Assembly: GCF_001606025.1 (NCBI RefSeq)
Contig: NZ_CP014945.1
Location: 3,224,001-3,288,000 of the forward strand
Direction of reading: 5' to 3'
DNA length: 64,000 bases
From: Psychrobacter alimentarius
GTDB lineage: Bacteria; Pseudomonadota; Gammaproteobacteria; Pseudomonadales; Moraxellaceae
Positions 15,785 through 33,505 of the stretch are shown in pieces. The notes beneath the pieces were generated by a model. That model did not search any database and was not told where the DNA came from. It worked only from the letters and a program-made list of their open reading frames with translations. The translations under genes were made by a program, and so were the position numbers. Positions within the stretch are counted from its first letter, which is position 1; every line of letters starts with the position of its first letter.

Positions 15785-15796
15785 AAACAGACGCGC

Positions 15797-15832
15797 AAAG
15801 AAAAGCCCCTTGATACGTTAGTATCAAGGGGC
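15797..15832 (-). terminator. rrn terminator, unit A
   Basis: On the minus strand a 12-bp stem GCCCCTTGATAC / GTATCAAGGGGC with loop TAAC is followed by TTTTCTTT. It lies 16 bp after the 5S gene. Confidence 0.92.
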
Positions 15833-15848
15833 TAGTCAGGAATAGAGA

Positions 15849-15961
15849 GCTGACGATGACCTACTCTCACATGGGCGAACCACACTACCATTGGCGCTAC
15901 GATGTTTCACTTCTGAGTTCGAGAAGGGATCAGGTGGTTCCATCGTGCTATTGTCGTCAGC
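15849..15961 (-). rRNA. rrf: 5S ribosomal RNA, unit A
   Basis: The 113-base segment begins GCTGACGACAATAGC and ends GGTCATCGTCAGC on the minus strand. The ends are complementary (helix I) and the internal CGAACTCAGAAGTGAAAC loop is the conserved 5S signature. It is last in the operon, followed by the terminator. Ends may be off by one or two bases. Confidence 0.95.
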
Positions 15962-16123
15962 AAAGGGGGTTAGATATGAGTCTGTTTGTGTGACTTTTGA
16001 TAAGTACCACATAACCTAACTGAATCAAGGTTAAGGTGATATCGAAATATACTTTCTTATTCTAAAGCTTTCGCTTTGCAAGATAGATTAATTAGACTTG
16101 ATACAAACCACTTGGGTGTTGTA

Positions 16124-31243: not shown

Positions 31244-31250
31244 ATATAAA

Positions 31251-31327
31251 TGGTGGGTCTAAGTGGACTTGAACCACTGACCCCCGCGTTATCAACACGG
31301 TGCTCTAACCAGCTGAGCTACAGACCC
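31251..31327 (-). tRNA. tRNA-Ile (GAT), unit C
   Basis: Identical to the unit A gene. Confidence 0.97.
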
Positions 31328-31399
31328 AATACGTCCTAAAACGTAAGCTTAAACTAAAGAACAACTTGTTGTGAATTCTTGCTGACCGAATGCTGTCTA

Positions 31400-32938
31400 T
31401 AAGGAGGTGATCCAGCCGCAGGTTCCCCTACGGCTACCTTGTTACGACTTCACCCCAGTCATCAACCACACCGTGGTGATCGCCTTCCTTACGGTTAGGC
31501 TAACCACTTCTGGTGCAATCAACTCCCATGGTGTGACGGGCGGTGTGTACAAGGCCCGGGAACGTATTCACCGCGGCATTCTGATCCGCGATTACTAGCG
31601 ATTCCTACTTCATGGAGTCGAGTTGCAGACTCCAATCTGGACTACGATAGGCTTTTTGAGATTCGCATCACATCGCTGTGTAGCTGCCCTCTGTACCTAC
31701 CATTGTAGCACGTGTGTAGCCCTGGTCGTAAGGGCCATGATGACTTGACGTCGTCCCCGCCTTCCTCCAGTTTGTCACTGGCAGTATCCTTAGAGTTCCC
31801 GGCTTAACCCGCTGGTAACTAAGGACAAGGGTTGCGCTCGTTGCGGGACTTAACCCAACATCTCACGACACGAGCTGACGACAGCCATGCAGCACCTGTA
31901 TTCTAATTCCCGAAGGCACTCCCGCATCTCTGCAGGATTCTAGATATGTCAAGACCAGGTAAGGTTCTTCGCGTTGCATCGAATTAAACCACATGCTCCA
32001 CCGCTTGTGCGGGCCCCCGTCAATTCATTTGAGTTTTAACCTTGCGGCCGTACTCCCCAGGCGGTCTACTTATTGCGTTAGCTGCGTCACTAAGTCCTCA
32101 AGGGACCCAACGACTAGTAGACATCGTTTACGGCGTGGACTACCAGGGTATCTAATCCTGTTTGCTACCCACGCTTTCGAGCCTCAGTGTCAGTATGATG
32201 CCAGAAGGCTGCCTTCGCCATCGGTATTCCTCCAGATCTCTACGCATTTCACCGCTACACCTGGAATTCTACCTTCCTCTCACCTACTCTAGCCTGACAG
32301 TATCAGATGCAGTTCCCAGGTTAAGCCCGGGGATTTCACATCTGACTTATCAAGCCACCTACGCTCGCTTTACGCCCAGTAATTCCGATTAACGCTTGCA
32401 CCCTCTGTATTACCGCGGCTGCTGGCACAGAGTTAGCCGGTGCTTATTCTGCAGCTAATGTCATCGTCTCCGGGTATTAACCGAAGAGTCTTCTTCACTG
32501 CTTAAAGTGCTTTACAACCAAAAGGCCTTCTTCACACACGCGGCATGGCTGGATCAGGGTTTCCCCCATTGTCCAATATTCCCCACTGCTGCCTCCCGTA
32601 GGAGTCCGGGCCGTGTCTCAGTCCCGGTGTGGCTGATCATCCTCTCAGACCAGCTACAGATCGTCGCCATGGTAGGCCTTTACCCCACCATCTAGCTAAT
32701 CCGACTTAGGCTCATCTAATAGCGAGAGCAACAAGTTGCCCCCTTTCTCCCGTAGGTCGTATGCGGTATTAATTCGAGTTTCCCCGAGCTATCCCCCACT
32801 ACTAGGTAGATTCCTAAGTATTACTCACCCGTCCGCCGCTCGTCATCTTCTAGCAAGCTAGAAATGTTACCGCTCGACTTGCATGTGTTAAGCCTGCCGC
32901 CAGCGTTCAATCTGAGCCATGATCAAACTCTTCAGTTT
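31400..32938 (-). rRNA. rrs: 16S ribosomal RNA, unit C
   Basis: Same as units A and B in every block compared. This is the first operon of the array in the direction of transcription. Confidence 0.97.
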
Positions 32939-33505
32939 AATCTTGCTATGAAGCTCTTTAAAGAAGCTTCTAAACTTGGCTCATCTAATCTGGCAAAATC
33001 GCTAAAAATTATGTTCGTAATGAATTAACTTTGAGTTTTTCTGCTGTCTTAAATGATAATTTTTATAGTTAATAATCTTCCCGAAAAGAAAAGATAGTCA
33101 ACTTTATTTTTTAGCATCCTGAATCAGCAAAAATCCACACAAGTTGTTCTTTAGTTATGCTTTTAAATAATGCCTGTCACTGTCGTCCAGTAGCAGTTAT
33201 CTCTTAACCAATTATTACATAGCCAATGTGGCTTATCCTAATTAGCGAGCTGACTATCATATCATGTTTTAATAGACTGTCAAGCTTCTTTTTTAATTCG
33301 TTTCAATAAGTTAGCTCGCTAATTTTAGTGATTACTCACTCAGTTATTAACTGCTTTGCCTTAATGAGGTGCGTATTATAGACGCTTTATTCTTAGTGTC
33401 AAGGGTTTATTTTAAGTTTGTTTGAATGACCTGAATCAACCAGATACTCAACCCACCTTCCCTTTCAACTGGGTGGCATTATACGGGGTTTTATCTTGTT
33501 AGCAA
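32939..33505 (-). promoter_or_regulatory. rrn leader and promoters, unit C, with a different P1 -35
   Basis: P2 (33375-33380 with TTGACA at 33397-33402) and P3 (33256-33261 with TTGACA at 33278-33283) equal the other units. P1 keeps TATAAT at 33478-33483 and the GC-rich discriminator. However, the sequence from 33486 on is unique, so its -35 is TTGCTA (33500-33505, still 16 bp away) instead of TTGACC, and the upstream tract differs. The first operon may therefore respond differently from the other two. Confidence 0.8.

What the first reader, a model, noticed from the sequence alone, without database searches (positions are those of the whole stretch)
15785..33485. Three complete rRNA operons in direct tandem with no gene between
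16S-Ile-Ala-23S-5S units repeat with an exact 5924-bp period, separated only by 71 bp. Bacteria usually scatter rrn operons. Tandem direct copies are prone to loss by recombination, so their retention suggests selection for dose, a recent amplification, or very efficient gene conversion. Copy number may vary between cells.
Basis: seen in the sequence. Interest (0 to 1): 0.85.

Follow-up and report, generated by a model that had tools for sequence, protein, structure and literature searches.

The report
Tandem array of ribosomal RNA operons
Three complete ribosomal RNA operons sit head to tail near the replication origin of a Psychrobacter chromosome, and many relatives carry a similar array with two to four units, so this looks like a lasting array that changes length rather than a one-off duplication.

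Summary
Window 15785-33485 is three direct copies of a 5853-bp rRNA operon block on the minus strand, separated by two identical 71-bp spacers (period exactly 5924; genes). The genome has two more, scattered operons.

The array is not peculiar to this strain. Of 26 low-contig genomes of the genus with more than one 16S found, 21 have neighbouring same-strand operons, in groups of 2-4; 18 of these arrays lie directly beside thrS. Outside the genus I counted 1 of 15 (incomplete searches).

Units carry their own promoters, and here their own terminators. Spacers are identical within four arrays but differ between species; spacer and SNP patterns suggest unequal exchange plus gene conversion. Best reading: a standing array, 75-93 kb from dnaA, that changes length and homogenises, not one recent amplification.

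Tandem rrn clusters are known in other bacteria, so this is a new member of a known kind. Unit number in living cells is untested: no reads were available, and the middle unit has no private marker.

The parts
27633..33485 (-). Unit a1 (first transcribed, beside thrS): leader, 16S 31400-32938, tRNA-Ile 31251-31327, tRNA-Ala 31168-31243, 23S 27971-30825, 5S 27696-27809
27562..27632 (-). 71-bp spacer between a1 and a2; supplies the -35 of promoter P1 of a2
   Evidence: (site at 21657 plus one period)
21709..27561 (-). Unit a2: 16S 25476-27014, tRNA-Ile 25327-25403, tRNA-Ala 25244-25319, 23S 22047-24901, 5S 21772-21885; identical to a1
21638..21708 (-). 71-bp spacer between a2 and a3, identical to the other; supplies the -35 of P1 of a3
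15785..21637 (-). Unit a3 (last transcribed): 16S 19552-21090, tRNA-Ile 19403-19479, tRNA-Ala 19320-19395, 23S 16123-18977, 5S 15848-15961; differs from a1 and a2 at 16078 and 19186
21630..21657 (-). Promoter-like site P1 of a3, TTGACC-16-TATAAT, spanning the repeat edge (copy one period up for a2)
   Evidence: consensus match only
21408..21554 (-). Promoter-like sites P2 (21527-21554, TTGACA-16-TATAAT) and P3 (21408-21435, TTGACA-16-TATGAT) in the repeated leader of a3; same in each unit
   Evidence: consensus matches only
33256..33505 (-). Promoter-like sites of a1: P1 TTGCTA-16-TATAAT (33478-33505), P2 (33375-33402), P3 (33256-33283)
   Evidence: consensus matches only
21728..21757 (-). Terminator-like hairpin (13 pairs, then T-rich) after the 5S of a2; the same sequence ends the other two units
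   Evidence: identity of units
33961..35895 (+). thrS (TIGR00418), divergent neighbour of the array, shared flank in 18 of 21 arrays
13912..15441 (-). M20-type peptidase-like gene downstream of a3 (NCBIfam matches, none over its curated cut-off)

Best explanation
This is a standing tandem rRNA-operon array at the thrS-linked rrn locus of Psychrobacter. Shown by sequence: three complete units, each with promoter-like sites and a terminator-like hairpin, and related arrays of two to four units at the same locus in other species. Inferred: each unit is transcribed on its own and the three units near the origin add rRNA gene dose; recombination between neighbouring units (unequal exchange) changes their number; gene conversion keeps the rRNA genes alike across array and scattered copies. 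The present three-unit form most likely arose by a fairly recent exchange inside an older array of two or more units.
For: Exact repeat with complete genes. 21 of 26 resolved low-contig genomes of the genus have same-strand neighbouring operons, 18 of 21 beside thrS. The junction spacer is recognisable in G052 and G065 (91-92% over 85-92 bp), so it is not private to this strain. Intergenic regions are identical within G000, G052, G065 and G102 although G000-G052 differ by 17.2% and G052-G065 by 3.9%. G051 has first = third (1 difference in 834) and a different second region, as exchange in a two-unit register would give. Unit number differs at 97.6% thrS identity (G009 four, G049 two). In G000 site 19186 has a new base in a1 and a2 only, and site 16078 a base shared by a3, d1 and d2. 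a1 shares 47 bp beyond the repeat edge with d1. Promoter-like sites stand before each unit scanned except one from a poor genome.
Against: In five of the ten arrays with three or more units (G001, G009, G044, G046, G075) no two intergenic regions are identical, so homogenisation is not universal. Five of 26 genomes show no tandem; three of these are doubtful assemblies at the locus, G026 and G055 have no such excuse that I saw. In G044 and G046 the array is at another locus. Deep-clade spacers are only weakly similar, so one common origin is not shown. No reads, no expression data; a2 differs from a1 in nothing but position.
Confidence: 0.8

Rival explanations
1. Assembly artefact: the true locus has one or two units and a copy was added in assembly.
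For: a2 is identical to a1 over the whole unit, so no private marker proves three units. Assemblers are known to struggle with such repeats (PMC8156514, passage). One genome of the genus has about 1.2 kb of junk in the 23S of this very locus (G027).
Against: a3 differs from a1/a2 at two sites, so at least two units are real unless these are errors. Other assemblies in the genus show arrays, two of them (G052, G065) with a related junction and three units, and several have spacers that differ between units.
Confidence: 0.08
2. A single recent amplification in this strain only, without an older array.
For: Two spacers identical over 681 bp and units a1 and a2 identical.
Against: The junction spacer is shared with G052 and G065, and thrS-side arrays are found in 17 other genomes.
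Confidence: 0.07
3. The arrays arose many times independently by insertion of extra operons (for example from excised circles) at a permissive place beside thrS, rather than persisting and turning over.
For: Spacers of distant clades are hardly alike; G044 and G046 carry arrays at a different locus; the G000 spacer resembles upstream regions of operons of G026 and G029 (79-80% over about 70-80 bp for the G052/G065 version).
Against: Shared junctions inside clades (G000/G052/G065; G009/G051/G019 and others).
Confidence: 0.2
4. The array is kept by neutral recombination balance, with no benefit from dose.
For: Unit number differs between close species (4 versus 2 at 97.6% thrS identity). No fitness or expression data exist here.
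Against: Every intergenic region scanned except G075_I2 keeps at least two sites with 10 or more of 12 promoter consensus bases (G044 and G046 not scanned), and the rRNA genes of the three units here are intact by model score. Intact genes do not by themselves show selection for number.
Confidence: 0.35

Closest known systems
Tandem rRNA operons of Bacillus subtilis (one two-unit and one three-unit set; PMC8156514, passages)
   Same: Complete chromosomal operons in direct tandem; the paper calls them the most likely to be lost by recombination and hard for assemblers.
   Different: Other phylum; here one locus beside thrS with two to four units across a genus and spacer turnover between species.
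Tandem rRNA operons in Vibrio alginolyticus (three regions, inferred during assembly; PMC10956519, passage) and the pair in Pseudomonas putida KT2440 (PMC3335818, passage)
   Same: Gammaproteobacteria with neighbouring operons.
   Different: Pairs in KT2440; no comparison of unit number or spacers across species was seen in the passages.
Three tandem rrn operons on Persicobacter plasmids (PMC10645730, passages)
   Same: Two or three 16S-Ile-Ala-23S-5S units in tandem, kept across a family.
   Different: There they are the only rrn copies and lie on a plasmid; here they are chromosomal with scattered copies besides.
Eukaryotic rDNA arrays (recalled)
   Same: Tandem units, spacers alike within a genome and different between species in some lineages, unequal exchange as the proposed cause.
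   Different: Only two to four units, extra scattered copies, and no fork-barrier element known or searched for.

Membership tests
Bacterial rrn operon (16S-Ile-Ala-23S-5S) | Full-length 16S, tRNA-Ile, tRNA-Ala, 23S, 5S in order | tested here: met
   for all three units
Bacterial rrn operon (16S-Ile-Ala-23S-5S) | Own promoters and terminator | tested here: inconclusive
   Consensus matches in each unit; no transcript data
Chromosomal tandem rrn cluster (as in B. subtilis) | Two or more complete operons, same strand, adjacent, no protein gene between | tested here: met
Chromosomal tandem rrn cluster (as in B. subtilis) | Unit loss or gain by homologous recombination | tested here: inconclusive
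   Unit number differs between species and spacer patterns fit exchange; not observed directly
Eukaryote-like rDNA array | Spacers homogenised within a genome, diverged between species | tested here: inconclusive
   Met in G000, G052, G065 and G102; partly in G051; not in G001, G009, G044, G046, G075
Eukaryote-like rDNA array | Unit number varies among cells of one strain | not testable with these tools
   Needs reads
Eukaryote-like rDNA array | Replication fork barrier in the spacer | not tested
   No such element was searched for

The most novel reading that the evidence does not exclude
Psychrobacter keeps a miniature, eukaryote-like rDNA array whose unit number varies from cell to cell through unequal exchange, giving quick and reversible changes of ribosome capacity, with downstream units carrying a stronger extra promoter than the first unit in several lineages.
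Probability: 0.3. Interest if true: 0.7.

Novelty: new member of a known kind. Interest (0 to 1): 0.45.

Why it matters
It gives a genus with many sequenced species in which a bacterial rRNA-operon array sits mostly at one locus with differing unit number. Unit gain, loss and homogenisation, usually studied in eukaryotic rDNA, could be measured there in a haploid bacterium. It also warns that short-read assemblies undercount rRNA operons in this genus: 4 of 30 low-contig genomes showed a single 16S, and one published draft reports one rRNA operon copy (PMC5822837, passage).

Tried and rejected
Strain-specific recent amplification: disfavoured, since the junction is shared with G052 and G065. 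One common origin of all arrays: not supported beyond clades, since deep-clade spacers have only weak or promoter-near similarity. Source of the 71-bp spacer: in the own genome only neighbouring terminator or leader parts of the query match elsewhere; upstream regions of single operons in G026 and G029 resemble the G052/G065 version (79-80% over about 70-80 bp), which points to an ordinary rrn promoter upstream region but not to a donor locus.

Sister species G088 (thrS 99% identical as protein): rrn is collapsed to one 5396-bp contig and other contigs begin at rrn edges, so it neither confirms nor denies an array. Junction search over 105 genomes of the genus: besides G000, the best matches to the spacer part are in G052 and G065 (92%), then weaker ones (73-84%) such as G066, G075, G024, G027, G032 and G098. 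The genus-wide 16S search scored only three candidates per genome, so counts come from the repeat on 30 genomes. The class-level control is nearly uninformative: several one-contig genomes returned no 16S at all. Named thrS loci: rrn leader sequence beside thrS was seen in P. vallis, P. immobilis 1617 (with 16S) and P. fozii drafts, only thrS-near sequence in P. immobilis Liston1000 and P. coccoides, none in four Acinetobacter loci, a Moraxella MAG and a Moraxellaceae MAG.

Literature: eight searches of the open PMC library listed no paper that I could recognise as reporting tandem rrn in Psychrobacter. I saw listings, plus passages of ten papers; of the 34 papers with 'Psychrobacter' and 'rRNA operon' 25 were listed and two opened. 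Subscription papers were not searched. Psychrobacter sp. G is said to have '12 rRNA operons' with no arrangement given (PMC3778199, passage). Passages without use for the argument: PMC6002687, PMC7643998, PMC4465626, PMC11883441.

Full report
WHAT IS THERE. The window is G000:C1:3224001-3288000 of a 3349444-base genome in two contigs, scored 100% complete. At lag 5924 the sequence matches itself from 15785 to 33485 without a gap; only two substitutions occur inside. This is three copies of a 5853-bp block with two identical 71-bp spacers. The rRNA and tRNA genes are on the minus strand, so the first transcribed unit (a1) is the one beside thrS (27633-33485), then a2 (21709-27561), then a3 (15785-21637). 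Each has a full 16S, Ile-GAT, Ala-TGC, 23S and 5S with identical model scores. A repeat of this length cannot be chance. The genome has two more operons, at 766 kb (d1) and 3047 kb (d2).

PLACE. The first 4 kb of contig C1 encode proteins that I recognise by sight as DnaA, DnaN and RecF (no family search was made). The array at 3239785-3257485 of 3332539 is thus 75-93 kb from dnaA and is transcribed away from it, that is, along with replication if the origin lies at dnaA (inference). thrS (TIGR00418) and infC (TIGR00168) follow on the far side of a1; a gene with M20-type peptidase matches below the curated cut-offs lies beyond a3.

UNIT ANATOMY. The scans find promoter-like sites P2 (TTGACA-16-TATAAT) and P3 (TTGACA-16-TATGAT) in the repeated leader and a 13-pair terminator-like hairpin after the 5S. 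The repeat edge cuts through a third site, P1: its -10 is in the repeat and its -35 outside. For a2 and a3 the -35 (TTGACC) comes from the 71-bp spacer; for a1 it is TTGCTA from the thrS side. In the 19 array genomes scanned (G044 and G046 were not), G052, G065, G053, G016, G090 and G072 have a P1 (TTGACC or TTGACG) before the second unit and no equal site before the first (G072 has a weaker one further up); G010 has a weaker one before the first; G089 and G005 have the same site before both; G009, G051, G049, G019 and G012 have none before either; G004 has a weak site before the first unit only, and G102 has weak sites in both places. These are consensus matches, not measured promoters.

THE GENUS. 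I searched 105 genomes of the genus (only three candidates per genome scored) and then the 30 listed ones with 10 or fewer contigs with more candidates. Four of the 30 (G015, G061, G088, G100) show one 16S only, as collapsed assemblies do. Of the other 26, 21 have at least two 16S genes on one strand less than 8.1 kb apart: two in G004, G005, G010, G012, G016, G019, G049, G053, G072, G089 and G090; three in G000, G001, G044, G046, G052 and G065; four in G009, G051, G075 and G102. Five do not: G026, G027, G029, G055, G082. G027's thrS-linked 23S holds about 1.2 kb of junk, and G029 and G082 have a 16S within about 3 kb of a contig end, so for these three the single unit is doubtful; G026 is in six contigs; G055 is one contig with four scattered operons. 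In G005 and G046 an ORF of over 100 aa lies between units, and G072 has a 2.3-kb intergenic region with a 91-aa ORF that looks to me like part of an insertion sequence (by sight). So 18 of 21 are gene-free as far as I looked: ORFs were checked in 10 intergenic regions of 9 genomes and in the window; the rest are 865 bp or shorter.

SAME LOCUS. thrS lies divergent next to the first unit in 18 of the 21 arrays. In G102 it is about 5.5 kb off. In G044 and G046 thrS adjoins a single operon, and the array lies at a place whose upstream flank matches that of d2 in G000. In a thrS tree of 29 of the 30 genomes (G075 left out) and seven named loci, G055 and then G044/G046 branch before the others, followed by G005. 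The simplest history is a thrS-side array in the ancestor of the remaining genomes and a separate one in G044/G046; this is inference, since deep spacers are not clearly homologous.

CONTROLS. Genomes outside the genus with two or more full 16S hits: 8 in the family (one with a pair 6.6 kb apart, G112), 6 in the order (none), 1 in the class (none), together 1 of 15. Left out of the count: genomes with one hit or fragments only. Seven candidates per genome were scored and several one- or two-contig genomes gave no 16S, so copies were missed and the rate is a lower bound. A later 23S search shows another neighbouring pair in the order (G367, 5.5 kb apart), outside that count.

TURNOVER. Of the ten arrays with three or more units, the intergenic regions are identical within G000, G052, G065 and G102; in G051 the first and third differ by one base of 834 and the second is different; in G001, G009, G044, G046 and G075 none are identical. 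Between genomes, G000-G052 differ by 17.2% and G052-G065 by 3.9% of aligned intergenic positions. The G000 spacer is recognisable in G052 and G065 (91-92% over 85-92 bp), so the junction is older than these species, yet each has identical copies of its own version. Repeated amplification or steady unequal exchange would both do this. G009 and G049, with thrS 97.6% alike, have four and two units. G009_I2 is closer to G075_I2 (10.7%) than to its own neighbours (16.5-18.5%), so some spacer types may be older than a species split; G075 is a poor genome (85% complete, thrS with stops), so this carries little weight.

CONVERSION. In ten of the 21 array genomes I compared array and two scattered units by segment. 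16S is identical in nine; G102 has a differing array unit. 23S is identical in seven; G052 differs by 3 bases and G065 by 2 (d2) between array and scattered copies, G102 by about one, and G065_d1 is foreign-looking. Leaders differ more: within the array in G009, G049 and G065, and from scattered copies in G000, G009, G049, G053 and G065. Between species the medians for first units are 31 (16S), 44 (23S) and 61 (16S-23S spacer) substitutions. In G000, site 19186 has a new base in a1 and a2 only, and at site 16078 a3, d1 and d2 share a base that differs from a1, a2 and the five other species shown. a1 also shares 47 bp beyond the repeat edge with d1, whereas a2 and a3 do not. A two-unit array that exchanged unequally on the 5' side of 19186 would give a2 as found; this is inference.

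SCAR AT d2. About 160 bp after the 5S of d2 in G000 a second operon end follows: 78 bases matching the end of the array unit (last bases of the 5S and terminator) at 95%. In the sister G088 a contig that begins in a 5S end runs straight into this type of terminator and a similar flank (by eye). I read this as the remains of a lost neighbouring unit or of a replaced operon end.

VERDICT. It is a set of ordinary rrn operons in an uncommon but known arrangement. What seems new, as far as the searches named under Tried and rejected show, is that it marks most resolved genomes of a genus, mainly at one locus, with changing unit number and spacer turnover. Not shown: unit number in cells, transcription from each unit, and any benefit.

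Noticed in passing
L142:3346-6199 (G065:C1:721445-724298): One scattered operon of G065 has a 23S only about 85% identical to the 23S of its own array, while its 16S is identical and the 23S is full-length by model score. Its middle 1301 bases match 12 genomes of another family of the order (f14) at 93-95%, next best 88%; best within the own family, other than itself, 85%. It looks like a 23S acquired from that family, perhaps Pseudomonadaceae (my guess from genome size).
   Followed up: partly
L007; G000:C1:3043363-3043414 and about 25 bp around: A second rRNA-operon end (last 5S bases and terminator) stands about 160 bp beyond the end of scattered operon d2, a possible scar of a lost neighbouring unit.
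   Followed up: partly
L043 (G027:C1:3085900-3097300): About 1.2 kb inside the thrS-linked 23S is G/T-rich junk, an apparent assembly failure at the very locus.
   Followed up: no
L041 and G001:C1 (five 16S places): Four of five 16S genes of G001 score 1106-1280 bits against 1578 for the fifth; either a low-quality assembly or really diverged copies.
   Followed up: no
L022-L023 (G075:C1:601000-630500): A partial second 5S (87% identity) follows the last 5S of the four-unit array of G075, in a genome of poor quality.
   Followed up: no
G367:C1:800891-807714: Two 23S hits 5.5 kb apart on one strand in an f14 genome: another neighbouring rrn pair outside the family.
   Followed up: no
G112:C1:424697-432835: A pair of 16S genes 6.6 kb apart in another genus of the same family.
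   Followed up: no
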